From a virus: 64,000 nucleotides of DNA. Location of the stretch: positions 62,001-126,000 of IMG/VR virus record IMGVR_UViG_3300030419_007436; one strand, given 5' to 3'. A program made the translations under genes and the position numbers. The notes under the pieces are model-generated. The model saw only the letters and a program-made list of their open reading frames with translations, searched no databases and was not told where the DNA came from. Of the stretch, positions 1,641 through 63,980 are shown piece after piece (positions within the stretch are counted from its first letter, which is position 1; each line of letters opens with the position of its first letter).

Positions 1641-1661
1641 ATATATCCTTTTTTAATTAAG

Positions 1662-2094
1662 TGGAGACGTCGGGAGTCGAACCCGAGTCCAAAAAATCTA
1701 AAATATAATATGATATACAAGAATTGGTACGTTCACCACCTAAGCACCAGCCACCCAACTCTATGTCGGGGAAATCCATTCACCACTCTTAAGGCGTTGG
1801 CTACCAAAATTATATAGTCCTTATATAATTCAATCGCCCAGCCGATTTTAAGACCTTTTTTATGGCCACAGCTAAGCTAGGTTATTCGAACCCTTAAAAA
1901 CTAATACATGATATCGTATGCATTGCCGATCTAACTTTTTTAATAAAGTGTTAGCCACTCCAGATTATGCAGCTAAGGCGTAATCAAATTCAACGTTATC
2001 GTTGGCATTTATAAAGTTTGAGTATTTTTGCTGTGATACCCACACAGTCTTGCATATTATACTTTTAATTCTCTGTCGAAACCATTTCGTCCCC
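1662..2094 (-). ncRNA. ssrA: Transfer-messenger RNA (tmRNA), one-piece form
   Basis: Read on the minus strand, the 5' GGGGACG pairs with the 3' CGTCTCC to form a tRNA-like acceptor stem. The 3' part contains the T-arm sequence GGACTCGGGTTCGACTCCCG. Internally, GCC AAC GAT AAC GTT GAA TTT ... GCC TTA GCT GCA TAA encodes the tag ANDNVEFDYALAA followed by a stop, which has the normal YALAA proteolysis end. The CCA end does not appear to be encoded. tmRNA rescues stalled ribosomes with SmpB; no smpB is visible here, so host SmpB would be used. It is expressed from its own promoter at 2114-2142 and needs 5' processing. The conclusion is firm; the exact ends are within a few bases. Confidence 0.95.
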
Positions 2095-9899: not shown

Positions 9900-11030
9900 C
9901 TAAATAGTTTTCTTTTTTCCTACAGTAACCTTAAAACTTTTAAAACTTTTGTTTAAAGACTGATAAAAATATTTAGACCAGCTTTCAAACAAAAGTGGAT
10001 CCTTTTTGTTCTCATACATTGTTGGAATATGATGCTGTCTTGAAACATCTTTGCCGGTTATATTTCCTATGTATTTTTTTCTAAAAGCTGCTGAAGGATT
10101 TTTCTCGACACCCTTTGTGCTTTTTGAATAATCATTTGGCACAACATGCTCAGAACCATCTGGCATTTTTACCTTAAGATCATCTTTTATATTAATTTTT
10201 TTAGCTACTAATTCAACCCAGGAATCCCACAATTTTCGGGAGATATCATCAGCGCCCGTTTCCTTTGCGATTTGTCTTAAAAATTCTACATATTTTTGTG
10301 CTAGTTCGACTCCACCAGAAGTAAGTTTTATTATATTACTATCAAACTCACCAGCTTGAATAACTTTTTTACCAGATGCCGTAACTGATGGAGTTTTAAA
10401 TCCTTTATCTCCCGGGGTTAATATATTAAATTCTTGCGAAATACCTTTATAAATATTTAAATTAATTGAATCAATACAGCCTAAACGACCAATAATTAGT
10501 TGGGTGGCAAAAGCAGCTTTAGGTAAACCAAATCCTGGTAGTGTTATTGTTTGTAGATAAATATTAAATAAGGCCTCTTCTTTTCTTAAACCATTAGAAT
10601 TATTATACTCATCAAATAGAGGGCTGAAGCTGGAATATATGCTTTCTCTATTTTTCCACAAAAAATCAATTGCATGTTTCCTTGGTCCCATAACCAATTG
10701 TCCAAAGCCAGAAAAATCATATCTTGGTTTGTCTTCACCAGGATTCAATAAGTTTCTATCAGTCATTAATCCATCATTTTCATGAACAAAATTTAGTAAT
10801 ATTGGAAACTTTGGTACCACATCATACCATCTCATTTGTTGTGTGCCGATTACAAACATCAATACATCAGCTAATTGATCTGGAGAGTATTGTGCGTATT
10901 CATTTATAAGGGGATTGTATTTGCAAAAGCCAGAATCAAACTCTTTTGATAAATCTAATACAGCATCCTCAGAAGCTTCTTCTTCAGCTTCTTTAATATA
11001 CTCTCGCCAATTTTCAAATAGTAATTTCAT
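9900..11030 (-). CDS. Type B-tagged internal protein (376 aa)
   Basis: The start at 11030 gives the tag MKLLFENWREYIKE followed by an acidic linker, and overlaps the preceding stop as TAATG; the longer in-frame start is less likely. The tag ends in I-K-E, a T4-type prohead protease site. The body (about 350 residues) is mixed alpha/beta (YAQYSPDQLADVLMFVIG; AFATQLIIGRLGCIDSINL) and resembles no enzyme I recognise. It is probably packaged in the capsid. Confidence 0.65.
   Translation of the reverse strand: MKLLFENWREYIKEAEEEASEDAVLDLSKEFDSGFCKYNPLINEYAQYSPDQLADVLMFVIGTQQMRWYDVVPKFPILLNFVHENDGLMTDRNLLNPGEDKPRYDFSGFGQLVMGPRKHAIDFLWKNRESIYSSFSPLFDEYNNSNGLRKEEALFNIYLQTITLPGFGLPKAAFATQLIIGRLGCIDSINLNIYKGISQEFNILTPGDKGFKTPSVTASGKKVIQAGEFDSNIIKLTSGGVELAQKYVEFLRQIAKETGADDISRKLWDSWVELVAKKINIKDDLKVKMPDGSEHVVPNDYSKSTKGVEKNPSAAFRKKYIGNITGKDVSRQHHIPTMYENKKDPLLFESWSKYFYQSLNKSFKSFKVTVGKKKTI
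9901..9909 (-). promoter_or_regulatory. AACTATTTA motif, possible late promoter
   Basis: This is one of seven similar intergenic copies on the coding strand in this window. Here it is followed by GTTATATAATG, so the start codon is only 8 nt downstream. A transcript starting about 7 nt after the element would be nearly leaderless. Confidence 0.4.
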
Positions 11031-12388: not shown

Positions 12389-12438
12389 TTGTGTCCCTTA
12401 GTGAGAAATTTTCGCCAATTTTCAAACGTTTTTTTCAT
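12382..12438 (-). CDS. Orphan type B tag minigene (18 aa)
   Basis: ATG at 12438 encodes MKKTFENWRKFLTKGHKC and a stop. An AGGGGA site lies 9 nt upstream. It overlaps the end of the HAD gene and the start of the LamG gene (CACAAATGTTAA holds both its last codons and the LamG ATG). One extra A in CACAAA would fuse the tag in frame to the LamG protein. It is either a free tag peptide, a frameshift leader or a decayed tag. Confidence 0.6.
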   Translation of the reverse strand: MKKTFENWRKFLTKGHKC

Positions 12439-12952
12439 ACATTAATTCCCCTGATTCTTCTGCCTTTTGATTTCTTTCTTTTTCGTAAGCATTCCGCAAT
12501 TTTCCAAAAATACCGTAAGGATCGGAAGGGATTGCTTCGAGACCAGCTTCTTCGGCGTCTAAAATATCTTCTGGATCATCGTCATGGTGCATCGACGAGT
12601 TTAAATTTTTAAGAGTTTCAATTTTAGCGTTGCCATTGGTAAAATATACCCCATCTACATTTAATCCATGTTCATCGAGAAACTCTTGCACAGCGCGCTG
12701 CTCTTCATTTTCTAAGGATTGGGCCTCTCTGTCTTCATATCTGGAAGTCACAACATATACTACAACATCTGGTTCCCTAATAAATTCTTTAATTCTTTTC
12801 ATCATTGGCTCATAAGGGCCCGCGTGTTTCCATGTACCGGTTTCATCATTAAAATCTGATTTCGCCAAGGTATCATCAAAATCAAACGTAACAACTTTTT
12901 TTTCTTCTTGTTCGTTTAAATACTTTCGCCAATTTTCAAATAGGAGTTTCAT
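12422..12952 (-). CDS. Type B-tagged HAD-family phosphatase-like protein (176 aa)
   Basis: The tag MKLLFENWRKYLNE is followed at once by a HAD fold: VVTFDFDDTLAKSDF (motif I, DxDxT), VVYVVTSRY (motif II Thr/Ser), a conserved Lys in NAKIETLKNL, and HHDDDPED (motif IV acidic pair). It is like the 3'-phosphatase or 5'-nucleotidase branch of the superfamily; substrate unknown. A packaged HAD enzyme would act on host or phage nucleotides or nucleic acid ends just after injection (inference). Confidence 0.75.
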   Translation of the reverse strand: MKLLFENWRKYLNEQEEKKVVTFDFDDTLAKSDFNDETGTWKHAGPYEPMMKRIKEFIREPDVVVYVVTSRYEDREAQSLENEEQRAVQEFLDEHGLNVDGVYFTNGNAKIETLKNLNSSMHHDDDPEDILDAEEAGLEAIPSDPYGIFGKLRNAYEKERNQKAEESGELMYEKNV

Positions 12953-16203: not shown

Positions 16204-18330
16204 TTAGTTTGTTTTTTTAATTTTATTACCACAAGCAGTTTCGTCTAAAATTTCTAGAAGACTATTATACATCTCAATCGCCTTCATTGTTAAGGGATAA
16301 ACCTTACCGCCCATACCAGCAGCTGCTAATGCTTCATAATTATCTGCCGAACCAAAATCTAATAAAAGCTCGTGTGTAAAGGCGTAGAAAGATAATTCAT
16401 CAGCTGCATTAATCATATTGACTAGCGTAGCCTCAGTGATCTCAGGTATAAGATATGATTGTCCAGCTTCATCAGAAAAAACGATTACCACGTGTTTTGC
16501 GTCCTCTCGCCAACTAATATCCCATTTTTCTTTAGGTGGGTTTGATTCTGATACCCATGTTCCCATCCACTGCAAATCTGCAAGGGGATATGGAAGGCCG
16601 TTGGCGCCAATTAAATTATGAATTGCAAGATAAATGGCGTCATAGTTTTGCTCACTACCACCGTTTAATGAAAAGCCGGAGTTTTGGAATATTTGCATAA
16701 ATGTATCAAAATCAACTAAGTCGGTCTGAAGCACTACATTTTCTTTCCACGCGACTGGATCATAAGAGGCAGTAAATACAAGGCCCCACTTAACTACGTC
16801 CGAATCACTATAGTGAGTCGCAAATTTATTAAGAGCAGTCATGACAGCGTTAATTTCCTCTACCATCGACCCTGAAAGATCCACAATAAATAATATATCT
16901 GTTGGTTCAAGTTGTTTATCTTCATCGATCATACCATCACAATTAGTATCAGTGCCGTTGCATAAATCTTCTAGCTCTGGTGTTATTTCACCCAAGCATA
17001 GTTTTTTAACAAACTGATTGTTGTCGTCGTAATTGCCCCACGTTCCCGCTATGCAAGTCATTTCGCCGGGAACACAGATACCAACATGCATTGTTTGTGG
17101 AGGTCCGCTATAACAGCCTGCAAAGAGATTTTCATCAATTAATTGGTTACAGTTATCATCATGGTTATTACACTCTTCTGGTTTTATCTCACCTAGGTAT
17201 TTATCACATGTTGCTCCCGGGGATAAAGTTTGTGGAAGCCAATGACAAGCGGCTAAACATTCACTTAATTGTAGTTCAGCACATGTTGGGTCTGTAGGGT
17301 CTGCACACTCACATGTTTTATAACCTGCGCCGCAAACTAATGGACTTTCTTGACATTTAAATAAAGTACCAATATCTTGTTTTGTACAAAGGCAATCTAA
17401 GCCTTCATCAGCTTTTCCATCACAATCATCATCTAAACCATTGCAGATTTCTTCTTTAGGTTGCTTTGCCGTACAAATCCATTGACCACCAACACAATAT
17501 TGTAGATTTTCTTCACAGTCTGTAGAACATTTGTCTATTAAATCTTCATCAATTAGGCCGTTACAATCATTATCAATCCCATCGCATATTTCATCATCGA
17601 CGGGCCCGCACTTGCCGCATGCGTTTAGCTGTCCTTCATCAGTTTCACCATCGCAGTCATTATCAATGCCGTCACAAACTTCTTCAGGTTCTTTTCCACA
17701 ACCACCACATGCATTTGCAACACCATTATCAATTACACCATCACAATCGTTATCTATAAAGTCACAAACTTCCTCTGGGACGTCTCCACACTGCCCACAA
17801 GCGTTAATAACGCCTTCATCGATCTCTCCATCACAATCGTTGTCTATAAGGTCACAGACCTCCTCTGAGCAGTCTGATTTGCAGTTTGTATATTGTATCT
17901 GTCCTTTATTACAGAGCTTATCTTTTGTCCCGGGATATCCTTCTTCTGTTGTGCATGGAATATTAGCCTCTAGAACTGGCTGTGATGGATTACACTCTAA
18001 ATGTGCTTCACATTCACCTTCAAAAACTATAGTTGGGGGGCTATTACAATTGTTGATGCAGATCTGCTTTTGCCAAACAACGTCTAAGTTGCCGCAAAAG
18101 TACCACGCGCACTCAACACAGGGATCTGTATATATTGAATATGTATCTTGTTCTATATCTTCTTCTATATCTTCTTCTACGTCTGGCTCACTAACATCTT
18201 CAATTTCTGGATATGTATATACGTGTTCATTGTTTCCATTTCCGCCCTGTTGATTATTGCTGCATGAAACTATAAAGAGTAAAGCAAATATAATAACAAG
18301 GCATATATAAATTAGTCTTTTGAAGGACAC
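16204..18330 (-). CDS. Large lipoprotein with seven MopE-type Asp/Cys repeats and a VWA domain (708 aa)
   Basis: The signal peptide ends in a lipobox (LLFIVSCSNN). An acidic linker follows, then seven copies of the CDGIDNDCDGEIDEG-type motif (MopE-like putative metal-binding repeat). Residues about 480-690 form a von Willebrand factor A domain with the MIDAS start ILFIVDLSGSM and VVIVFSDEAGQS. This repeat-plus-VWA layout is typical of Myxococcota-type surface proteins. A perfect TATAAT lies about 15 nt upstream of the start. It was probably acquired from a host; display on the infected cell surface is inferred. Confidence 0.8.
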   Translation of the reverse strand: MSFKRLIYICLVIIFALLFIVSCSNNQQGGNGNNEHVYTYPEIEDVSEPDVEEDIEEDIEQDTYSIYTDPCVECAWYFCGNLDVVWQKQICINNCNSPPTIVFEGECEAHLECNPSQPVLEANIPCTTEEGYPGTKDKLCNKGQIQYTNCKSDCSEEVCDLIDNDCDGEIDEGVINACGQCGDVPEEVCDFIDNDCDGVIDNGVANACGGCGKEPEEVCDGIDNDCDGETDEGQLNACGKCGPVDDEICDGIDNDCNGLIDEDLIDKCSTDCEENLQYCVGGQWICTAKQPKEEICNGLDDDCDGKADEGLDCLCTKQDIGTLFKCQESPLVCGAGYKTCECADPTDPTCAELQLSECLAACHWLPQTLSPGATCDKYLGEIKPEECNNHDDNCNQLIDENLFAGCYSGPPQTMHVGICVPGEMTCIAGTWGNYDDNNQFVKKLCLGEITPELEDLCNGTDTNCDGMIDEDKQLEPTDILFIVDLSGSMVEEINAVMTALNKFATHYSDSDVVKWGLVFTASYDPVAWKENVVLQTDLVDFDTFMQIFQNSGFSLNGGSEQNYDAIYLAIHNLIGANGLPYPLADLQWMGTWVSESNPPKEKWDISWREDAKHVVIVFSDEAGQSYLIPEITEATLVNMINAADELSFYAFTHELLLDFGSADNYEALAAAGMGGKVYPLTMKAIEMYNSLLEILDETACGNKIKKTN

Positions 18331-18389: not shown

Positions 18390-18740
18390 TTATTTCTGAG
18401 ATATATCAACTGGAGGAGAAGAAAATTGTACACCCAATATCCTATCTCCTGATTCATCTTTCAATGTCGACAGTTGTTTTTTAAGAAATATGCCGTAATT
18501 TACCATTCCAGTTTCATTGACAATACATTTTATTTCTAGTACTGCTGCTTTTTGCGAGTTTGATATATTTCTTTGCTGTTCTTTGGTTTTTACGATTGTA
18601 ACACCAGGGATTGCACGAATTTTCTCAAAGATATCTGCATAAAGGTTTGCGTCCTTTTCTAAACGAACTAATACGTTAAATTCCCATCTATTTTTAATTT
18701 CTTTTAGATAGTTACGAAAATTTTCAAGAATTAGTTTCAT
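18390..18740 (-). CDS. Type B-tagged small alpha/beta protein (116 aa)
   Basis: The tag MKLILENFRNYLKE is followed by a beta-alpha-beta protein of about 100 residues (FNVLVRLEKDANLYADIFEK; GVTIVKTKEQ; AVLEIKCIV), which looks like a ferredoxin/ACT-type fold. Cleavage after L-K-E would release it. Function unknown. Confidence 0.65.
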   Translation of the reverse strand: MKLILENFRNYLKEIKNRWEFNVLVRLEKDANLYADIFEKIRAIPGVTIVKTKEQQRNISNSQKAAVLEIKCIVNETGMVNYGIFLKKQLSTLKDESGDRILGVQFSSPPVDISQK

Positions 18741-24014: not shown

Positions 24015-24635
24015 TTATCCCAGTTCCTTAATTATTTTTTCAACATCCCCATCATCATACACAATATATACATCTTCATCCAATCCAAGTACTTTTTCTT
24101 GCATGTCGCTGGCTTCTTGTCTGGCCCTAGAAAGTCTTTCTTCATATTCTTCTTGAGATTTATACTCTCCTTTATTTAGGCGCTTTAAATGTCGTCTTTC
24201 TAGCTCCTCTGTAGATGGAGGCGCCGAAAAAACAAGTATTAATTCTTTTCCGTATTTTGCTGCAACATTCCTTAAGTCATTCTCATCCTTACTTCCATCA
24301 ATACTTGTTTCGTCTGTAACTAATATTGCTTTTTGAGCATTTAAAAAATCTTCTAATTTTGTTCCATAATAATTACCACCGTATTGATTAGTATTAATTA
24401 ATTGTCCACTTTTGTCTTTTTCTAACCAGTCCTCTTCTGTTGTAAAATCATATTCAACATCTTCTTCGCCCCTCGGCGGGCGAGTAACTAATGAAACTAA
24501 TTCCTTCCATCCGTGTTTTTTAAATATATTTTTTTGTCTAGACTTTCCAGATCCAGATGGTCCAAATATGGCAACAACCTTACCAGATTTAGATTCTTTC
24601 AGATATTGGCGCCAGTTTTCAAATAAGAGTTTCAA
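24015..24635 (-). CDS. Type B-tagged guanylate-kinase-like protein (206 aa)
   Basis: The start is TTG at 24635, set by an AGGAG site and by the tag MKLLFENWRQYLKE; it overlaps the upstream stop (TTGA). The body has a P-loop (VVAIFGPSGSGKS) and the GMP-binding segment (LVTRPPRGEEDVEYDF) of guanylate kinases, and a helical lid. GMP kinases phosphorylate GMP to GDP; a packaged copy would act early in infection. The fold assignment is firm, the exact substrate is not. Confidence 0.8.
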   Translation of the reverse strand: MKLLFENWRQYLKESKSGKVVAIFGPSGSGKSRQKNIFKKHGWKELVSLVTRPPRGEEDVEYDFTTEEDWLEKDKSGQLINTNQYGGNYYGTKLEDFLNAQKAILVTDETSIDGSKDENDLRNVAAKYGKELILVFSAPPSTEELERRHLKRLNKGEYKSQEEYEERLSRARQEASDMQEKVLGLDEDVYIVYDDGDVEKIIKELG

Positions 24636-24844
24636 TCTTTTTTAAATCTCCTAAATGTGTAAGTATTCCATTGATCTAGTTGATTAGTCGTGTTAGATAA
24701 ATTCCATCGTTCTGGTATATTACAAACTGGTATTAGTGCATGCAAAAGAAATACAAGGCCTCTAAAAATTAAAGTTAATCCAATTTTACCAGCAAATAGT
24801 AGATGACTTAAGTAAGTCTCGTTATTTTCTTTTAGATGCATCAT
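24632..24844 (-). CDS. DUF6356-like membrane protein (70 aa)
   Basis: The pattern ENNETYLSHLLFAGKIGLTL then GLVFLLHALIPVCN matches the small DUF6356-type proteins (E-x-Y-x-x-H, then HxxxP in a membrane helix). Function unknown. It overlaps the stop of the upstream tagged gene (TAATG) and the TTG start of the kinase gene. Confidence 0.65.
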   Translation of the reverse strand: MMHLKENNETYLSHLLFAGKIGLTLIFRGLVFLLHALIPVCNIPERWNLSNTTNQLDQWNTYTFRRFKKD

Positions 24845-25749
24845 TATAACAATTCCTTTGTAATAGAAAGTGATTCTTCACTACTCGCAATTTCATCTGA
24901 AGTTAATTGTACATCCACACCAAGCTGTTTGAGTTTTTCATATTTTTCAGAGTTTTGCCAGTGAGCTTTAATTTCTTCCATGGTTTCAGAATCGTATTCA
25001 TCAACTAGTTGAACCAAGACAACGCCATTATTATCGATATTCATATTTTTTATTGGCATCTCAACGTAGTCTTCAATCATATTAATAATTTCCGGATCTA
25101 ACTCCGGAGTATCTACTTCTACTTTAACTAACTCCTTTCTTTCAGGGTCTAATCTATATCCTGTAATCTCAGGATCAACCTCTCCAACTTGATCAAAATC
25201 AAATCCTGGCAATATTGCTATTTTCTGAGGGGGAAAATACCCTCTATCTAAAAAGAAAGCAGCTTGGCCCACAACCTCTGTAAACAAGGCGCCTGCAGCT
25301 GAAGGAGGAACAGTCTTCATGTGAGCATTATAAGAGGCAATTTCTCCTTCAAAAGTAAAATCGGTATCTCTCTGACAGTGTGTCATATAATCGTGTACTG
25401 CTCGTAGCTTTAAATTTAGTTCTGGGCTAAATATTTGATGTTCTGTGCCACCTTTCCATATCTTTAGTATACCATTATTAAGGGCATCAGCACACATTTC
25501 TTTTGGCCCCTCATATGGATCTTCATCAACAAACTGTATATCCACTCTAGAAGATATTCTTTTGAACATTTTATCTACAAATGGCTCTATTGCTTCGAAT
25601 GCGCCAACAGCCTCTTGATCAAATATGGGAGCTTCATCATAAGCTTTCGCTACTAATTCTCTATATTTATCCCATCCATCAGGTCCAGGCTTGAGCATTA
25701 ACTTTTCTGTTAGTAGGAATTTTCGCCAATTTTCAAATAATAGTTTCAT
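24844..25749 (-). CDS. Type B-tagged protein of an uncharacterised phage family (301 aa)
   Basis: The tag MKLLFENWRKFLLTE ends in L-T-E. The body has conserved-looking segments RAVHDYMTHCQRDTDFTFEG and ALFTEVVGQAAFF, a pair I associate with an uncharacterised family found in many phages. No catalytic assignment is possible. Start and stop both overlap neighbours, so it is part of a tightly coupled run of tagged genes. Confidence 0.7.
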   Translation of the reverse strand: MKLLFENWRKFLLTEKLMLKPGPDGWDKYRELVAKAYDEAPIFDQEAVGAFEAIEPFVDKMFKRISSRVDIQFVDEDPYEGPKEMCADALNNGILKIWKGGTEHQIFSPELNLKLRAVHDYMTHCQRDTDFTFEGEIASYNAHMKTVPPSAAGALFTEVVGQAAFFLDRGYFPPQKIAILPGFDFDQVGEVDPEITGYRLDPERKELVKVEVDTPELDPEIINMIEDYVEMPIKNMNIDNNGVVLVQLVDEYDSETMEEIKAHWQNSEKYEKLKQLGVDVQLTSDEIASSEESLSITKELL

Positions 25750-26777
25750 TATTGAGCCCTTCTGACAAATATTTTTTCAGCTGCAATATTACCAATCGCT
25801 AACACCTCTTCCTCATCTCTAAAAGTTTTTAAAACATTGACTTTGTTTTTATCTAGCGTTTTGGCAACATCAATAAATTTATCTCCAGAGGTTTGAAAAA
25901 TAATTTCAAATCTATCGCCATGCGTTGCCGTTGTTTGATCAGCAAACCTTTCAGCTTGTTTCCAACTCTTTGTAAATGATTTTCCCCCTTCTTGTGCGGC
26001 TATCGTGATTCCTGATCCTGGAAGTTTAATTTCAACCCATTTACCCGGCTGGCTCCAGACTTCTTGAAATTGTTTTCTGAAAAAATAATCTGCAGAATTA
26101 GCAGGATTTGGTCCTTTGCCCGCGCGGTACGCAATATAATCAAGCGGTTTACGATTTTTAATTCCGGGAATATTTAATTGGTCTACTAGCTGCATGAAAT
26201 TATTTGCTCTAGCTCCTCGAAAAGCTTTTCCAGAATATCCGACTGCCTTTCCCTCTTTTGCCATTTTTAAAAGTCTATTCATATCTCCCCTTTTAAGAAC
26301 ACCAAAGCCTTGAGTAGTTTCCATATATATTTTGAGTTTTTCTATGGACACTTTACCCGCGTCGTCAATTTTGTTGGCCATTTTTGCGCCATCTGAGACT
26401 CCATCAAACATCTTTTTACCTTTATCGGTAACTGTTTTTGTGGTTCTCATTAATTTGGCAGCCTTTGCTGGCGCAGCGGCTTTTCCAAGTACAGGAATAA
26501 TTGCAAGAAGTGCTAAAAGCCATTCTCCTCCAGCCTTCATTGTTCTCTGATCGTTTAAATTTTTCGTTGCTGCAGCAAATTCTGGCCACGATAAAATACC
26601 TGTCGGTTCTACAATAGAAACAATTTGTCTTATTGTATCTGCCTGTTCAACGGTCATTTTACTAGAAAGGCTTACTAAGGCATCAAGAGTACGCTCTTCA
26701 GAAGGTCCGCCCATTCCTGTTATTTCGTTTAAAGATTCTTTTCTAAAATTTCGCCAATTTTCAAATAGTAGTTTCAT
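25749..26777 (-). CDS. Type B-tagged ADP-ribosyltransferase-like protein (342 aa)
   Basis: The tag MKLLFENWRNFRKESLNE ends in L-N-E. After a helical region and an Ala-rich segment (LLALLAIIPVLGKAAAPAKA), residues about 180-335 carry the R-S-E pattern of arginine-type ADP-ribosyltransferases: GKAFRGARANN (Arg), KSFTKSWKQAERFAD (Ser-type strand) and RDEEEVLAIG (ExE). T4 Alt, a packaged and injected ADP-ribosyltransferase that modifies host RNA polymerase, is the natural parallel. Activity and target are inferred. Confidence 0.7.
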   Translation of the reverse strand: MKLLFENWRNFRKESLNEITGMGGPSEERTLDALVSLSSKMTVEQADTIRQIVSIVEPTGILSWPEFAAATKNLNDQRTMKAGGEWLLALLAIIPVLGKAAAPAKAAKLMRTTKTVTDKGKKMFDGVSDGAKMANKIDDAGKVSIEKLKIYMETTQGFGVLKRGDMNRLLKMAKEGKAVGYSGKAFRGARANNFMQLVDQLNIPGIKNRKPLDYIAYRAGKGPNPANSADYFFRKQFQEVWSQPGKWVEIKLPGSGITIAAQEGGKSFTKSWKQAERFADQTTATHGDRFEIIFQTSGDKFIDVAKTLDKNKVNVLKTFRDEEEVLAIGNIAAEKIFVRRAQ

Positions 26778-26988: not shown

Positions 26989-27420
26989 TTAAAACCACTC
27001 TACATCTTTAAAAATATCTTTTAGTTGGTTAAAGAAATCAGAAATAACTTTTTTGTCTTCTTCTGATATTGCTCCGTTATCTGCAATTATTACTTTATCG
27101 TTTCCATTGCCGTCAACATATTTTACAATGCCTACTGGTTTTAAATTTTGAGATTTAGAGTCTGAACTGGGAGATATTACAAAGTCCCAGCCCATATTAT
27201 CGGCTGGATTAATTGCATCCGTCCACTCACCATAATCAAATGGCAGTTCTAGTTGTGTACCACCTTTAAAGGCCTTCGTAGAGCCTTTAGGACTATCTAT
27301 ATTACGATTTTGATTTGCTTCTGGATTTTGATTTAGATATCCAATTAGATTTTCATATGAATCTAGAGATTTTTCTTCTTCGGTGAGATATTGACGCCAA
27401 CTTTCAAATAATGTCTTCAC
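26989..27420 (-). CDS. Type B-tagged small protein (143 aa)
   Basis: A GTG start gives the tag MKTLFESWRQYLTE. The remaining 129 residues are acidic (YENLIGYLNQNPEANQN; FVISPSSDSKSQNLKPVGIV) and not recognised. It would be released by cleavage after L-T-E. Confidence 0.65.
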   Translation of the reverse strand: MKTLFESWRQYLTEEEKSLDSYENLIGYLNQNPEANQNRNIDSPKGSTKAFKGGTQLELPFDYGEWTDAINPADNMGWDFVISPSSDSKSQNLKPVGIVKYVDGNGNDKVIIADNGAISEEDKKVISDFFNQLKDIFKDVEWF

Positions 27421-29021: not shown

Positions 29022-29336
29022 TTATCCTTCCCACACACTTTCACATGCACTAGGATCTCCTGAGAATTTCTGTAGTCCCAGCGTACGGACCGTATCTTCT
29101 TTGCCCCATTTTTCTAGATAGGCCCGGGCCTGTCTAGCATTATCTTCCGGAGTGTTTCTTCCACCAGCTGCAGCATAAAATTTACGTGCATTGGCAATTG
29201 ACCACCCTAGTTTACACAGCGGCACCTTCTGCGCATTAACATAAGCTAGCACGTTATCAGGATAGGGCTCTTCCATAAGAACGCTTCTTAGTTCTTCTTG
29301 GATAATTTGTCTAAGTTTTGATTTGGTTAATTTCAT
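29022..29336 (-). CDS. Type A-tagged small protein (104 aa)
   Basis: The N-terminus MKLTKSKLRQIIQEELRSVL is shared almost exactly with the next upstream gene (both continue RSVLMEE). The body is small and helical (LGWSIANARKFYAAAGGRN) with two Cys. Function unknown. Confidence 0.7.
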   Translation of the reverse strand: MKLTKSKLRQIIQEELRSVLMEEPYPDNVLAYVNAQKVPLCKLGWSIANARKFYAAAGGRNTPEDNARQARAYLEKWGKEDTVRTLGLQKFSGDPSACESVWEG

Positions 29337-29360: not shown

Positions 29361-29636
29361 CTATAATAGAGGCCGTAAACCTATAGCTGATAGCTGCTCC
29401 TCATCCATCCCCGGGCGCATGGCACAACTGCGCACATCGCTAGCGGTTTTGGTGGCGTCTTGGCCAACACATTGAGAATTCCACAATCGCGAACATTTAC
29501 TCATACTATAAGCAGGTTCGCCCTGGGCCAATTCTTTACTTACCCTTACACACCAAGCGCTAGCTTCTTCTTCCATAAGAACGCTTCTTAGTTCTTCTTT
29601 AATAATTTGTTTAAGTCTGGATTTTGTTAATTTCAT
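29361..29636 (-). CDS. Type A-tagged Cys-rich small protein (91 aa)
   Basis: The tag MKLTKSRLKQIIKEELRSVL is followed by a short body with four Cys (AWCVRVSKELA; MSKCSRLWNSQCVG; VRSCAM). AAGGAG precedes the ATG. It is the tagged gene nearest to a divergent plus-strand gene; an AACTATTTA-like motif lies 22 nt upstream. Confidence 0.7.
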   Translation of the reverse strand: MKLTKSRLKQIIKEELRSVLMEEEASAWCVRVSKELAQGEPAYSMSKCSRLWNSQCVGQDATKTASDVRSCAMRPGMDEEQLSAIGLRPLL

Positions 29637-31557: not shown

Positions 31558-32076
31558 TTAATGCATGCGTTGGAATTGTTCTAATAACACATCTTTAATA
31601 ATGCGGCGTAGATTTTCTTCGAATGTACCGCTAAAGGTGGCACCGACGCCCTTACCTTTAACTATATCTCCGGCGGTACCCACGCCTGCCGCGCCTAATT
31701 TAACATTTCCTAACTTACTATGCATACCGGTAATCTTTGCTTTTGCAATATCTCCACCGGAGCGCTTCTTAGCTACTTTTGGCGTACGCATAATGATATT
31801 TTTGTTTTTTTCGTACCATTCTTTGTATTTAAAAAAATTGTCGCGCTGCTTTTTATGATTGCCCATCATAGACTCCGCCTTACAAAGGTGAGCTACGCCC
31901 GCTGCTTTGGCATATTTACAAAAATGTTTTACACTTTGGGTAGCTGCAAAACCATCACTAGCGGTTGCTAGGGCAATTGATTTAAATTCTTTATTTTCTG
32001 TATCTGCAGCTGGCGCCACAGCTTCATGTATTTCTTCTTGTATGAGTTGTTTGAGTGTTGATTTAGTAAGCTTCAT
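31558..32076 (-). CDS. Type A-tagged protein with a tag-like C-terminus (172 aa)
   Basis: The tag MKLTKSTLKQLIQEEI starts the protein. The body is basic and helical with two Cys. The last 20 residues (ENLRRIIKDVLLEQ) repeat the pattern of the type A tag, so the cargo may be cut at both ends. Function unknown. Confidence 0.65.
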   Translation of the reverse strand: MKLTKSTLKQLIQEEIHEAVAPAADTENKEFKSIALATASDGFAATQSVKHFCKYAKAAGVAHLCKAESMMGNHKKQRDNFFKYKEWYEKNKNIIMRTPKVAKKRSGGDIAKAKITGMHSKLGNVKLGAAGVGTAGDIVKGKGVGATFSGTFEENLRRIIKDVLLEQFQRMH

Positions 32077-32257: not shown

Positions 32258-32518
32258 TTATCTACTACACCCATCGCCAACCCACTCCCATTGATTTTTT
32301 AAAGAATCGCTGGGCTCACCCTTCAGTCTCACAACTCTGCATGGTTTTTGTTCACAATATACCTTTGAATATTGGTTATCCATATTAATAAGTTCAAATA
32401 CCCCTTCTTCGTCTCTATAACATGGATTTACAGCACCTTCCAGGAGTTGCTGTTCCAGCATTATATTTTGTAATTCTTCTTGTATGATTTGTTTAAGTTT
32501 GGATTTGGTTAGTTTCAT
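32258..32518 (-). CDS. Type A-tagged Cys-containing protein, paralog of 28762-29016 (86 aa)
   Basis: The ATG at 32518 follows a GAGGGT site and gives MKLTKSKLKQIIQEEL. The body (PCYRDEEGVFELINMDNQ; VYCEQKPCRVVRLKG) matches that of the gene at 28762-29016. An AACTACTTATTA sequence, one mismatch from the late-type motif, lies upstream. It is the last tagged gene before the early-type region. Confidence 0.7.
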   Translation of the reverse strand: MKLTKSKLKQIIQEELQNIMLEQQLLEGAVNPCYRDEEGVFELINMDNQYSKVYCEQKPCRVVRLKGEPSDSLKNQWEWVGDGCSR

Positions 32519-32645
32519 GGTAAACCCTCGCATAATAAGTAGTTTACAAAAAACTTAAAATCTCAAAAATTGGGCTGCGATTTATACACGTACTTAGTCG
32601 CGCTATAAGTGCCCGTAATCACTACTAGAACATACATTCCGGTAT

Positions 32646-49442: not shown

Positions 49443-51017
49443 CTAGTTAGCACATTCGATAATGGCATGATTAGTTGTGATTAAAGTGGACGCAACAGAC
49501 GTTGCATTTTGTAGCGCACATCTTGTAACTTTTACTGGGTCAATAATCCCACTTTCCACCAAATTTACCAGCTTCCCGGTATTAAAATCAATTCCCTTGT
49601 TTTCTTTTGACTTTTCCACCAAAGATAATAAAATATCAGGAGAATAGCCAGCGTTCTTTGCCATCTGTCTGAAAGGTTCTTTTACTGCCTCGCAAACTAT
49701 CTGAACTCCCAGCTTTTGATCGTCATTATCTGTCGCGACTTTTAAATTTTTAGTAGCGCGTATAAGAGCCACACCTCCTCCTGAAACAACGCCCTCAAGC
49801 TGCGCGGCAGTTACCGCTTCGAGAGCATCTTCAATGCGGTGTTTTTTTTCTATCATTTCTACCTCGCTGGAGGCTCCCACTCGGATTATTGCAATACCGC
49901 TAGCAAGTCGAGTTATTCTTTCTTGTGCTTTCTCACATTCTTGCAAACTTTCCGTTTCTTTTATCTGAGCTTTTAGCAAATCAATTCTTTTTTCCACCTC
50001 ATCGATGTCCCCGTTTCCACCTACTACAGTTGTAAGATTTTTAGAACTTTCAATTGATTTGGCGCGGCCAAAATGATTGAGTTTTATATCTTTTAATCTC
50101 AAATTGTTTTGTCTTGTAATGAAAGTCGCACCGACAGAAAGCGCCAAATCATTAAGAATGCTTCGCCTTTCCTCTCCATATCTAGGCGCCTTAATCCCGG
50201 CGACGCGAAGAGTACCACGCATTGCATTCATAATTAACGCAGCAAGAGCCTGGCCTTCTATATTTTCAGCCACGATAATAAAAGGGCGACTCTCGCGCGC
50301 CGCTATTTCTAGCGCAGGCATCATGTCCTCTACATTGTCAATGCTCTCGTCTGTGACCATAATGAGGGGATCCTCGTAGCGCACGACACCTCTCTTTTCG
50401 TCAGTTACAAAGGCGCTAGCTAAATATCCAGAATCAAAGCGAAATCCCTCCACCAAGTCTAGACTAGTTTCAATTGATCGTGCCTCTTCGATTGTGATCG
50501 CTCCATCCTTGCCTGCAAGATCCACAGCTTTAGCAATTAAATTACCGATAAGGCTGTCATTGTTAGCTGATATTTTTGCAATGTGGGCTATTTCCTCCTG
50601 AGACATTATGGGTTGTGCCAAAGACTTTAAATTCTCTACAATCTGCTTCAAAGCCTTATCCATCCCTCTTTTTAGTTCTACTGGGGGCGCCCCGGCCATC
50701 AAATATTTTTGAGCCTGTGTTAAAATTGCGCGTGTTAAAACGGTAGATGTAGTGGTGCCGTCACCGGCCTCACTGTTAGTCCTTGATGCAGCCTGCTTGA
50801 TAATTTCTGCACCTACATTTTCAAAAGGATCCTTTAGTTCCACAAATTTAGCTACCGTTACTCCGTCTTTTGTAATTATTGGATTTTGCCCAGGTTGGTG
50901 TAGGATAACATTTCTTCCGCGCGGTCCAAGTGTAGAAGCCACGTTATCAGCCAGCGTAGCTGCTCCATTTAGAATTTTTTGTTGAAGATTTGTTCCCGAT
51001 TCATACTGTCGCGACAT
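49443..51017 (-). CDS. GroEL-type chaperonin (524 aa)
   Basis: Typical motifs: VASTLGPRGRNVI, TKDGVTVAKFVEL, GDGTTTSTVLTRAI (ATP site) and AQLEGVVSGGGVALI. The length is near the usual 540; the C-terminal GGM tail is missing. No groES gene is visible here. Phage-coded chaperonins fold virion proteins in some giant phages. It has its own promoter at 51042-51070. Confidence 0.95.
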   Translation of the reverse strand: MSRQYESGTNLQQKILNGAATLADNVASTLGPRGRNVILHQPGQNPIITKDGVTVAKFVELKDPFENVGAEIIKQAASRTNSEAGDGTTTSTVLTRAILTQAQKYLMAGAPPVELKRGMDKALKQIVENLKSLAQPIMSQEEIAHIAKISANNDSLIGNLIAKAVDLAGKDGAITIEEARSIETSLDLVEGFRFDSGYLASAFVTDEKRGVVRYEDPLIMVTDESIDNVEDMMPALEIAARESRPFIIVAENIEGQALAALIMNAMRGTLRVAGIKAPRYGEERRSILNDLALSVGATFITRQNNLRLKDIKLNHFGRAKSIESSKNLTTVVGGNGDIDEVEKRIDLLKAQIKETESLQECEKAQERITRLASGIAIIRVGASSEVEMIEKKHRIEDALEAVTAAQLEGVVSGGGVALIRATKNLKVATDNDDQKLGVQIVCEAVKEPFRQMAKNAGYSPDILLSLVEKSKENKGIDFNTGKLVNLVESGIIDPVKVTRCALQNATSVASTLITTNHAIIECAN

Positions 51018-59884: not shown

Positions 59885-62800
59885 TTATGCTAACATTCTG
59901 AAATTGTATTTTATAGAGCGGGTACTAAAACCCCACTGATCATCATATTCTAGTTTGCTCATGTATGGGTGATTTATATATATTTCATCTCGCTCGGGGT
60001 TAACTCCCCAACACTTAATGGCGGTCACTGTTGATGTGTTATCAATCACTTTAACAATCCAATAGGTTTTACCATTTTTTGTCTTTTTTGGGATGATCTC
60101 TCTTGGTATAAACCATGCTACCCCCAGATCATTGTCCCATTCTCCAATGGGGGGCACTTTATAATAATCAAGTCGATTCATAACAGAATCATCTAGTACT
60201 AAATCCATGGGAAATATGCCAGTAAGAGACACAAGATTATTAATTTTTTCTTCATCGTTGAAATCTCCCTCCGGCTTAAATAAATCAATATTTTCCTCAA
60301 ACTTTTTCAAATTCTTCGGCCTCTCAACAACCGCGGCTGACCAGAAGTGCTTAAGTCCTGTGAATCTATCATCCACCAAACTACTCAGCGCCCCAGATCG
60401 CACCAAGACATCCAGCGCCTTCTTGTTTAGTTTACTATAAAGAATGTTATCATTAAAGAGAAATTCTTCAGCACTTTTGAAAGGTCTGTTGTTAATAATT
60501 TGCTCGATTGCTTTTTCTCCTAATCCTTTCAAGGAGGTTAGGGGCTGTATAAGTGTTTTGTTGTCAGCGTCAATATCCCACACCACACCAGAATTATTAA
60601 CATCCACTGGCTTAATTTTAAATTTAAACTTTTTTGCGAGATTTATTGCTCTCTCTTTCCTAGTTTCTGGCTCTTTGTCTAAAAACGCCGCCATCCATTC
60701 AGCAGGATAATAATTAAAAAGCCATGCGCATTGATAAGAAATTATAGAATATGAAACAGCGTGAGATTTGTTGAAACCGTAGCCAGAGAAATATTCAAAC
60801 TTTTTCCACATTTTTTCTGCCCAGTTCTTGGACAACCCCTTTTCAACACACCCAGCAACAAACTTAAGCTTTATTTGATTTTTTTGTTTAGCTGCCGAGC
60901 CGGTGCCTTTTTTTGTAAGAAGCTTACGAAGCTTATTGCCTTCATCCAAACTCAAATCTTTGCCGAGCTTGTGGGCCAACAGTGCAATTTGTTCTTGAAA
61001 AATTAAAAAACCATAGGTTTCTTCTGTAAGACTCTTGACATAATCATGTTCGTAAAGAATATCTTCTGGGTTTTTTTTGGCCCTCACATAGAGTTTATCC
61101 ACATCCGCGCCGAGGGGCCCCGGGCGATAAATCGAGGTGATGGCAGCAAGATCAATTATGTTTCTAGGAAGCGCCTTTCTACAAAATTTTTGGGCGCCAT
61201 TCTCTGTAAATTGGAATATTCCGGCCCACTTGCCTTTATGAAAAATGTTTTCGTAAACTTTCTGATCATTTAAGTCTATTTTTTCCGGATGTAAATGTTT
61301 GTCATAATAGTTTTTAATATCCCTGAAGGTGGGTGACTTCACACCATGATATCTCTTAAGAATGTGACCAACTGCCCCTTCGATCATCTTCAGCGTCGAA
61401 AGGCCAAGAATATCAAATTTAATAAAGCCCATGGGTTCTAAGTGTCTGACATTTTGACCCTCTGACCACGGAGTTTGAGTAACTCCACCACTATTGATTA
61501 GTGGCATGTACTTATTTAAATCTTCTCCGATAACAACGCCACCGGCATGCCGAGAAACAGAGCGCATCTGCCCATATAGTACATTAATATGGCTTGCCAC
61601 GTGCGGGTGCTTGTTTAGAAAATTCTTAAGAGACTCCGAAAACTCCATAACTTCTTCAAAAGTTGGTGTATAAACTCCTGACTTAATGCCGTGCTTTTTC
61701 TTTGCTAGAGGTGTTGCCTCTTTGAGCATCCGAGAAGTAACAGCATTAACTTCCGTGAATGGTATTTCATAAAACTTAGATATATCTTTTACAAGAGAAC
61801 GAAGCTGCAAAGTGTTAAAATTTGAGATAGGTACAACCTTATCGCCTCCCCACTCATCAATCAACATCTCTTTAAGAATCATGGGATCAGATACATCATA
61901 ATCAATATCTGGGTAATCTTTTGCATCCGAACGCATAAAGCGAGAGAACAAAAGGTTATATTTGATGGGGTCAATCTGAGTTATCCCAAGCACATAGGCA
62001 ACTAATGATCCGGCTGCAGAGCCGCGGCCCGGGCCTGTAAGCTGTACTGAGTTTGCCTTGTCGACTACCGCATTCATTGTGAGAAAATACTTACTAAATC
62101 CCCTCTCATCAATAATTTGTAACTCTTCCTTAAGTCTATCAGTATATTCTTCTGCTGTGTGCAAACTCAACGCCCTCAATCCTTCAAAGCAAAGCTGTGA
62201 CAGCGCTTGTGAGGCCGTAAATCCGGCCGGTACAACAAAATCAGGGAGTCGCACCGTGTTATCCGGTAAAAACGATTCTATGCGCTCATGGGCAATTCTA
62301 TGAGTTTCTGTTATAGATTTCATTACTAAATCATCATCATATTTAGCGCCGCATTCTTTTGAATATGTTTTATAAGACTCCCACATCTGATCGCCGTTTT
62401 TCGGATAGAGTTCATATCCAATATCTTCAACTCCAATCGGAAGCTCAGACGAAAGCCATGAAGGTGTTGAACCTTTACCAAGCCACCCAAGGCGTTTATA
62501 AAGTTCTCTATCTTTCCATGCATTTTGCGAAGGATAGTGACTGTCCGCAGTAGAAATCAAACCAAACCCATACTTTTTAGATACTTGAATAATATATTTG
62601 TTTAACTCGTGTTGTTCGGGAATGTTATTCCACTGAAGCTCTCCATACCATCGATCACCGAATATGTCCATCATTTTCGTAGTGGTCTTGCTCATAGCAT
62701 CTCGAATTTGTGAGGGGCCCTTATCTTTATTTTCCCAATAGTCTCCAGCGTAGACGCCTCCGAGGCATGCGCTGGCAGCAATAACACCTTCGTTGTATTT

Positions 62801-63307
62801 ACGGAGGAGTTTGTAGTCTACCCTTGGAAAACGATAGAAGCTTTCTTTTGAAAAAGATTTAGAAACCATCTTAAAAATATTGTTTAGCCCCGTTTGATTT
62901 TGGGCCAAAAGAATTAGATGGCGTCGGCGGTTCAATATGTTTTTAACAGCAGTCTTCGACGAACCTTCATCCTCAATCGTCGTAGCTGACCTAGAATCGT
63001 CCAGCGTGCGTTTAGCCTTTTTGTCTTCTTTTGCTTTTTCGTATTCTTGTTTCCACTCTGAAAGGCTCGGAAGAAAGTAGGCCTCCACTCCAAATATGGG
63101 CTTAAAATTCTTGCCTTCTTCTTGCATTTTTTTGGCGTGTAGCACCTGATATGCCATACCATTCATATTACCATGGTCGGTTAAAGCAAGCGCATCGCAT
63201 CCATTATTATAGGCGAAATCCATGTGTTCCTGTGGGTATCCCAATCCATCAAAAGGGCTTCCAACTCCACTGTGTGCATGTAAACCAACGAAAGGTATTT
63301 TACTCAT
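59885..63307 (-). CDS. dnaE: DnaE-type DNA polymerase III alpha subunit (1140 aa)
   Basis: The ATG at 63307 follows GGAGAAGATA. An N-terminal PHP domain (FVGLHAHSGVGSPFDG, ALTDHGNMNG) is followed by the palm with GPGRGSAAGSLVAY and the catalytic DYPDIDYDVSD near residue 466. The fingers (IYRPGPLGADVD, FLIFQEQ, YGFNKSHAVSY) and an HhH region (SLKGLGEKAIEQI) follow. It is close to full bacterial length. A phage with T4-like traits but a C-family replicase is unusual. Confidence 0.95.
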   Translation of the reverse strand: MSKIPFVGLHAHSGVGSPFDGLGYPQEHMDFAYNNGCDALALTDHGNMNGMAYQVLHAKKMQEEGKNFKPIFGVEAYFLPSLSEWKQEYEKAKEDKKAKRTLDDSRSATTIEDEGSSKTAVKNILNRRRHLILLAQNQTGLNNIFKMVSKSFSKESFYRFPRVDYKLLRKYNEGVIAASACLGGVYAGDYWENKDKGPSQIRDAMSKTTTKMMDIFGDRWYGELQWNNIPEQHELNKYIIQVSKKYGFGLISTADSHYPSQNAWKDRELYKRLGWLGKGSTPSWLSSELPIGVEDIGYELYPKNGDQMWESYKTYSKECGAKYDDDLVMKSITETHRIAHERIESFLPDNTVRLPDFVVPAGFTASQALSQLCFEGLRALSLHTAEEYTDRLKEELQIIDERGFSKYFLTMNAVVDKANSVQLTGPGRGSAAGSLVAYVLGITQIDPIKYNLLFSRFMRSDAKDYPDIDYDVSDPMILKEMLIDEWGGDKVVPISNFNTLQLRSLVKDISKFYEIPFTEVNAVTSRMLKEATPLAKKKHGIKSGVYTPTFEEVMEFSESLKNFLNKHPHVASHINVLYGQMRSVSRHAGGVVIGEDLNKYMPLINSGGVTQTPWSEGQNVRHLEPMGFIKFDILGLSTLKMIEGAVGHILKRYHGVKSPTFRDIKNYYDKHLHPEKIDLNDQKVYENIFHKGKWAGIFQFTENGAQKFCRKALPRNIIDLAAITSIYRPGPLGADVDKLYVRAKKNPEDILYEHDYVKSLTEETYGFLIFQEQIALLAHKLGKDLSLDEGNKLRKLLTKKGTGSAAKQKNQIKLKFVAGCVEKGLSKNWAEKMWKKFEYFSGYGFNKSHAVSYSIISYQCAWLFNYYPAEWMAAFLDKEPETRKERAINLAKKFKFKIKPVDVNNSGVVWDIDADNKTLIQPLTSLKGLGEKAIEQIINNRPFKSAEEFLFNDNILYSKLNKKALDVLVRSGALSSLVDDRFTGLKHFWSAAVVERPKNLKKFEENIDLFKPEGDFNDEEKINNLVSLTGIFPMDLVLDDSVMNRLDYYKVPPIGEWDNDLGVAWFIPREIIPKKTKNGKTYWIVKVIDNTSTVTAIKCWGVNPERDEIYINHPYMSKLEYDDQWGFSTRSIKYNFRMLA

Positions 63308-63980
63308 TATCTTCTCCAATCATATTCCACTCATGATATCCTAACATACTCTTAGGGGGCTTGTCAAGTTTTTTGCCACTCCCTAAATATTTTTTTAAAT
63401 TGTCCCAATTGTCTATTTTGTAATACCAAGGTACCTCAACCTTTGTATCTTTTATTTTAACATTTTTAAATATCTTGTCAAGTTTAAAATGGCGGCCCGA
63501 CCATCTTTCTTCAATAGGAATTCTTTTTTTTGCGTCATAATCATTAAATTGGCCTGTTCCTTGTTCCCTTATTACACGACGGGCTTCCTTGAAATCTTCT
63601 GAGTCGAATGTAAAAGCCAAATACTCATCATTTCTCACGTCTTTTCCATCGTACGAAAGATAAAATCCTTTTTTATTTGAAATTTTACTCCTATGCGGGA
63701 TGATAACTTCGGGGTCATACACACCATATGGAAAACATGCATAATATTTATCAGGTATCACCCATTTACTTATTGTGCGACTCAACCAGTAAGCTGTTAA
63801 AGCACCATATAATACACTCCAACCAAGAGAATCTCTTTTGTCTCTATCTTTTTGGTGTATGGGCACATAGTATATGGGTATTACTCTTTCATGTTCCTTT
63901 GGAAATGTTTTTCTTGTGAGGTTGTGTCGAAGAGGATCCTGAACATAATCCCCCAGGCGGTACCTTATGAGGGGTTGCAT
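63300..63980 (-). CDS. Conserved phage protein (226 aa)
   Basis: The start MQPLIRYRLGDYVQDPLRHN and IPIYYVPIHQKDRDKRDSLG recall proteins of marine T4-like phages. It overlaps the DnaE start by 8 nt, so the two are probably co-translated. Function unknown. Confidence 0.65.
   Translation of the reverse strand: MQPLIRYRLGDYVQDPLRHNLTRKTFPKEHERVIPIYYVPIHQKDRDKRDSLGWSVLYGALTAYWLSRTISKWVIPDKYYACFPYGVYDPEVIIPHRSKISNKKGFYLSYDGKDVRNDEYLAFTFDSEDFKEARRVIREQGTGQFNDYDAKKRIPIEERWSGRHFKLDKIFKNVKIKDTKVEVPWYYKIDNWDNLKKYLGSGKKLDKPPKSMLGYHEWNMIGEDNE

What the first reader, a model, noticed from the sequence alone, without database searches (positions are those of the whole stretch)
25749..26777. Tagged ADP-ribosyltransferase-like protein parallels T4 Alt
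The R-S-E pattern (GKAFRGARANN, KSFTKSWKQAERFAD, RDEEEVLAIG) lies behind a type B tag. In T4, Alt is the classic packaged ADP-ribosyltransferase. This gives independent functional support for reading the tags as capsid addresses.
Basis: partly seen in the sequence, partly recalled or inferred. Interest (0 to 1): 0.7.

Follow-up and report, generated by a model that had tools for sequence, protein, structure and literature searches.

The report
Head-tagged phage protein, probable ADP-ribosyltransferase
A marine virus of bacteria carries a gene whose protein starts with a short address tag, probably for loading into the virus particle, and ends in what is probably an ADP-ribosyltransferase, echoing phage T4's injected enzyme Alt, although neither packaging nor enzyme activity has been shown.

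Summary
Tested against blocks made from other ARTs, the ordered triad ranks 5th of 3,520 ORFs (7 of 20,000 shuffles score as high). A distant homologue keeps R, the S motif and the last E, but not the first E of ExE. No HMM library recognises an ART and both AlphaFold models failed (pLDDT 38 and 42), so the ART call is probable, not shown.

The tag case is stronger, and does not depend on the ART. MKLLFENWRKYLNE heads over 100 unrelated families in viral contigs; its DNA pattern had no match in the bacterial and archaeal genome collection. A T4-type protease site, [LI]xE, sits at 12-14 in 68%. Every tag record above 128 kb (20 of 20) encodes an S77 prohead protease, whose own N-terminus (LLREYYE) resembles the tag. 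Among T4 proteins with annotated starts, M.L[IL].E.[FWY] fits only Alt (MELITELF) and its duplicate alt.-1.

Other tagged proteins look like ARTs too. Best reading: a head-packaged, injected effector that works like Alt but is not an Alt homologue. Its RNA polymerase target is unsupported.

The parts
25749..26777 (-). Gene of the 342-aa tagged protein P0001
   Evidence: ORF and translation; its stop overlaps the start of the next tagged gene by one base
26736..26777 (-). N-terminal type B tag, MKLLFENWRNFRKE (residues 1-14)
   Evidence: One of 293 distinct tagged proteins in the first set, 438 after a second scan
26760..26768 (-). LFE (residues 4-6), possible T4 gp21-type cleavage site
   Evidence: [LI]xE at 4-6 in 411 of 416 tags, but the search pattern partly imposes this
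26724..26732 (-). LNE (residues 16-18), candidate prohead-protease site of this copy
   Evidence: Sequence; the usual site at 12-14 reads RKE here
26430..26654 (-). Shared module with a hydrophobic stretch (residues 42-116, EPTGILSW...WLLALLAIIPVLGKAAAPAKAAKL)
   Evidence: 43% identity in L005 ORF1; also in L005 ORF2, L006 and a 1,075-aa protein of another phage, L017
25752..26336 (-). Probable R-S-E ADP-ribosyltransferase domain (residues 148-342)
   Evidence: Ordered motif triad; motif residues kept in a diverged homologue; fold not confirmed
26199..26228 (-). R motif KAFRGARANN, R187
   Evidence: Aligned with NKAVYRGMRVDAN of L005 ORF1
25938..25982 (-). S motif KSFTKSWKQAERFAD
   Evidence: Same spacing as SFTSDFSTARQFA of a ModA homologue
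25791..25820 (-). ExE motif RDEEEVLAIG (E322, E324)
   Evidence: Compare DEQEVMIPAG of T4 ModA
24844..25749 (-). Next tagged gene, MKLLFENWRKFLLTE, unknown function (phrog_3170)
24015..24635 (-). Tagged guanylate-kinase-like gene (TTG start)
   Evidence: PF00625 5e-14
26989..27420 (-). Tagged gene, MKTLFESWRQYLTE (GTG start), unknown function
12422..12952 (-). Tagged gene, MKLLFENWRKYLNE, weak phosphatase/polynucleotide-kinase resemblance
   Evidence: phrog_415 6e-9, PF06189 3e-4 below cut-off
9900..11030 (-). Tagged gene, MKLLFENWREYIKE, unknown function
18390..18740 (-). Tagged gene, MKLILENFRNYLKE, unknown function

Best explanation
The gene makes a cargo protein of the phage head. Its N-terminal 14-18 residues act like T4's capsid-targeting propeptides: they bind the prohead core during assembly and are then cut by the phage's gp21-type (S77) protease. 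The protein stays in the capsid with the DNA and enters the host at infection. There its C-terminal half, probably an R-S-E ADP-ribosyltransferase with an ExE motif typical of arginine-specific enzymes, modifies a host macromolecule from NAD. Shown by sequence: the tag, its distribution, the protease gene, the motif triad. Inferred: packaging, cleavage, injection, enzyme activity. Unknown: the target.
For: Head link: S77 protease (6e-25) and gp23 (5e-62) in the same record; S77 in all 20 tag records above 128 kb; 21 such proteases, this record's included, begin with an LL[RT]E[YF][YF]-like sequence; T4 gp21 has LLIETW; the tag pattern fits T4 Alt. T4 CTS function from PMC9026906. ART; other tagged ART-like proteins P0002 and P0003, the latter touching PF03496 below its cut-off.
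Against: No confident fold; Foldseek on that weak model shows no ART in the 50 best matches. No Pfam, PHROG, NCBIfam or PADLOC ART hit; the best Pfam hit is DUF6612 below cut-off. A ModA/ModB/Alt profile does not find P0001 and hhalign is insignificant. The homologue lacks the first E of ExE. This copy lacks the usual 12-14 cleavage site. The Alt and gp21 likenesses are short and the patterns were chosen after seeing them. No base rate was measured for S77 in large untagged contigs.
Confidence: 0.6

Rival explanations
1. Tagged head cargo, but the C-terminal half is not an ART: the motif triad is a coincidence and the domain is another fold, for example something like DUF6612.
For: DUF6612 is the best Pfam hit, E about 0.001, over residues 242-312; no fold support; other unrelated ORFs reach similar block scores.
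Against: Three motifs in order with fitting spacing, 7 of 20,000 shuffles as high; motif residues kept at 27% identity; the DUF6612 hit is below its curated cut-off.
Confidence: 0.22
2. The tag is an address for something other than the capsid core, for example the tail, a membrane or a phage-made compartment, or a handle for a phage chaperone or host factor.
For: Packaging has not been measured; tagged proteins include ordinary-looking enzymes (kinases, DnaJ, CCA-adding enzyme); amphipathic N-terminal helices can serve many addresses.
Against: Protease-site position, S77 co-occurrence and likeness to Alt and to S77 N-termini.
Confidence: 0.12
3. A tagged ART that has lost activity and serves only as an internal structural or DNA-condensing protein.
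For: The homologue has a degenerate ExE (F-x-E); fast divergence.
Against: P0001 itself keeps R, the S motif and both glutamates.
Confidence: 0.06

Closest known systems
T4 Alt (packaged ADP-ribosyltransferase)
   Same: N-terminus of the same pattern (MELITELF against MKLLFENW); R, S and ExE-type motifs; a T4-type head with an S77 protease in the same genome
   Different: 342 against 682 aa; no detectable sequence homology; different middle part; packaging, cleavage and target not shown
T4 internal proteins IPI-IPIII with capsid-targeting sequence
   Same: Short N-terminal MK..xE leader ending in [LI]xE in front of unrelated bodies
   Different: Here the leader is somewhat longer, highly conserved and used on over 100 families
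T4 ModA/ModB and relatives
   Same: Very similar S motif spacing (SFTxxxxxAxxFA) and ExE block
   Different: ModA/ModB carry no tag; P0001 has about 50 more residues between the R and S motifs; a ModA/ModB/Alt profile does not find it
ARTs of phage polyvalent proteins (PF18760) and other head-packaged phage ARTs (PMC5512222, PMC9503650)
   Same: Phage ART-like domain thought to enter the host with the DNA
   Different: Addressed by a short, probably cleavable tag on a small protein, not as part of a large multidomain virion protein

Membership tests
R-S-E ADP-ribosyltransferase superfamily | Conserved R, S-T-S type and Q/ExE motifs in order | tested here: met
   R187, S267-W272, E322/E324
R-S-E ADP-ribosyltransferase superfamily | ART fold | tested here: inconclusive
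   AlphaFold pLDDT 38.1 and 41.9; Foldseek no match at E<=0.001
R-S-E ADP-ribosyltransferase superfamily | Significant match to a curated ART family model | tested here: not met
   None for P0001. This is not strictly defining: P0003, with clearer motifs, also stays below the PF03496 cut-off, so the models' sensitivity is low
R-S-E ADP-ribosyltransferase superfamily | NAD-dependent transfer of ADP-ribose | not testable with these tools
   Needs an assay
T4 Alt family | Sequence homology to Alt | tested here: not met
   Not found by a ModA/ModB/Alt profile; no tblastn match in phage records
T4 Alt family | Alt-like N-terminal propeptide | tested here: met
   Pattern M.L[IL].E.[FWY] shared; short and chosen after the fact
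T4 Alt family | Packaged in the virion and injected | not testable with these tools
   Needs virion proteomics
T4-type capsid-targeting sequence cargo | Common N-terminal leader on otherwise unrelated proteins | tested here: met
   107 body families
T4-type capsid-targeting sequence cargo | gp21-type [LI]xE cleavage site ending the leader | tested here: inconclusive
   Met for the tag family (283 of 416); in P0001 the usual site reads RKE, with LFE and LNE as alternatives
T4-type capsid-targeting sequence cargo | S77 prohead protease and T4-like capsid in the genome | tested here: met
T4-type capsid-targeting sequence cargo | Leader sufficient for encapsidation | not testable with these tools
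   Needs a fusion experiment

The most novel reading that the evidence does not exclude
A large group of marine T4-like phages uses one 14-residue, protease-removable address as a general loading system for the capsid, placing arrays of up to about nine tagged genes of unrelated function (ARTs, kinases, nucleases, acetyltransferases and others) behind it, so that each virion delivers a mixed load of effectors at infection.
Probability: 0.6. Interest if true: 0.8.

Novelty: new variant of a known kind. Interest (0 to 1): 0.6.

Why it matters
Head-targeting leaders are known in detail only from T4 and a few model phages. A conserved, searchable tag would let one list, from sequence alone, what uncultured phages probably carry into the cell, and would turn many anonymous small genes into candidate effectors. 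The ART is a good test cargo, because its predicted activity can be assayed and its active-site residues can be mutated.

Tried and rejected
AlphaFold of the full protein with one homologue and of the C-terminal domain with hand-trimmed relatives: both too poor; the Foldseek search on the latter is not used as evidence. More homologues: viral scans with the whole protein, the C-terminal part, the module and the homologue, 90 whole viral records, the genome collection (with poorly chosen patterns) and phage records gave one relative that also has the ART half. A ModA/ModB/Alt profile and hhalign did not connect. T4 late-promoter-like TATAAATA is not enriched in the window. A DNA-level repeat as the cause of the tag: rejected because codons vary. 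The tag peptide was not found in 50,697 phage records by tblastn, but a 20-residue query is a weak test. The tag string is not in the open-access papers searched.

Full report
What was checked. The window is bases 62001-126000 of a 190,629-base virus record. The gene at 25749-26777 is a 342-residue ORF on the minus strand, in a run of tagged genes whose neighbour starts on its last base.

Is the C-terminal half an ADP-ribosyltransferase? Sequence libraries do not say so. The best Pfam hit, DUF6612, is below its cut-off. The motif evidence is positive but moderate. Score blocks for the R, S and E motifs built from ModA/ModB/Alt relatives and two other tagged proteins put this protein 5th of 3,520 ORFs, with 7 of 20,000 shuffles as high; the first two ranks are training members. 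A stricter pattern matches it and P0002 only, but was written with knowledge of both. The S motif, SFTKSWKQAERFA, has the exact spacing of SFTSDFSTARQFA in a ModA homologue. The one relative found that has the ART half too, L005 ORF1, shares 27% identity and keeps R187, G188, S267, T269, S271, W272 and E324, though not E322. Its own N-terminus is cut off by the contig end, but it is followed by three tagged genes. AlphaFold failed twice. I put the ART reading at about 0.75.

The middle part. Residues 42-116 form a module with a hydrophobic stretch (WLLALLAIIPVLGKA) that also occurs in two tagged proteins without ART motifs (L005 ORF2, L006) and in a 1,075-residue protein of another phage that also looks like a virion protein. 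A shared front with different C-termini recalls modular toxins; its role is unknown.

The tag. The complete tagged proteins of the first set fall into 107 families by their bodies. The consensus is MKLLFENWRKYLNE. Positions 12-14 were not part of the search pattern, yet read [LI]xE in 68% of tags against about 1.3% expected, and conservation stops there. [LI]xE is the cleavage logic of T4 gp21 (PMC9026906 discusses the cleavage logo and the capsid-targeting sequences; the exact consensus is from general knowledge). The record has an S77 protease and a gp23-like capsid protein. Of 34 tag-bearing records tested, 24 have S77, including all 20 above 128 kb; the 35th record tested, that of L017, was not fetched by the tag. 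Twenty of those proteases and that of this record begin with an LLREYYEL-like sequence followed by a LLTE-type site. In T4, gp21 carries LLIETW near its start, and among proteins with annotated starts only Alt and its partial duplicate alt.-1 fit the tag pattern M.L[IL].E.[FWY]; a third hit is an internal start in b-gt. These likenesses are short and were found by looking, so they are support rather than proof.

Cargo. Pfam matches among representative tagged proteins include protein kinases, HNH and exonuclease domains, acetyltransferases, a CCA-adding enzyme, DnaJ, guanylate kinase and one ART-PolyVal domain. P0002 (L106) and P0003 (L162) have clear R-S-E motifs behind the tag, and several tagged proteins begin with YHG-type motifs. 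ARTs therefore seem to recur as cargo, which fits a published survey that head-packaged ARTs are frequent in contractile-tailed phages (PMC9503650).

Conclusion. The protein most likely works like T4 Alt: addressed to the head, processed, injected, and modifying the host. It is not a member of the Alt family by sequence. Packaging, processing, activity and target all remain to be tested.

Noticed in passing
window 29022-29336, 29361-29636, 31558-32076, 32258-32533 and G000 164764-165207: A second leader type (MKLTKSKLRQIIKEEL...) heads several genes; the gene just after the S77 protease starts in a similar way (MKKTELKRMLKPLVKQCLKEALLED), and in L290 a gene with this leader lies just before the protease.
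   Followed up: partly
L106:111-1130 and L162:8458-9396: Two other tagged proteins with textbook R-S-E motifs; the second touches PF03496 below cut-off.
   Followed up: partly
L007:3075-3440, L055:4506-4871, L090:7205-7546, L091:4104-4463, L138:751-1950: Tagged proteins starting with YHG-type motifs, possibly small ART-PolyVal-like enzymes of other kinds.
   Followed up: no
window 24844-25749: Tagged neighbour matching phrog_3170 (4e-22), a phage family of unknown function.
   Followed up: no
window 1661-2094: A tmRNA gene predicted on the phage genome, with the tag peptide VAIKKVLKSAGRLNYIRTI.
   Followed up: no
window 59885-63319 and 49443-51017: DnaE-type DNA polymerase III alpha and a GroEL homologue in a phage with T4-like head genes.
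   Followed up: no
L007:8486-10405, L006:2172-4454, window 16204-18330: Large proteins with repeated MopE-type putative metal-binding motifs (Pfam-confirmed in the window only) near tagged genes in three phages.
   Followed up: no
L017:3590-6817: The hydrophobic PTGI...PALGK module occurs in a 1,075-aa protein of a phage record that was not fetched by the tag and has no S77 hit.
   Followed up: partly
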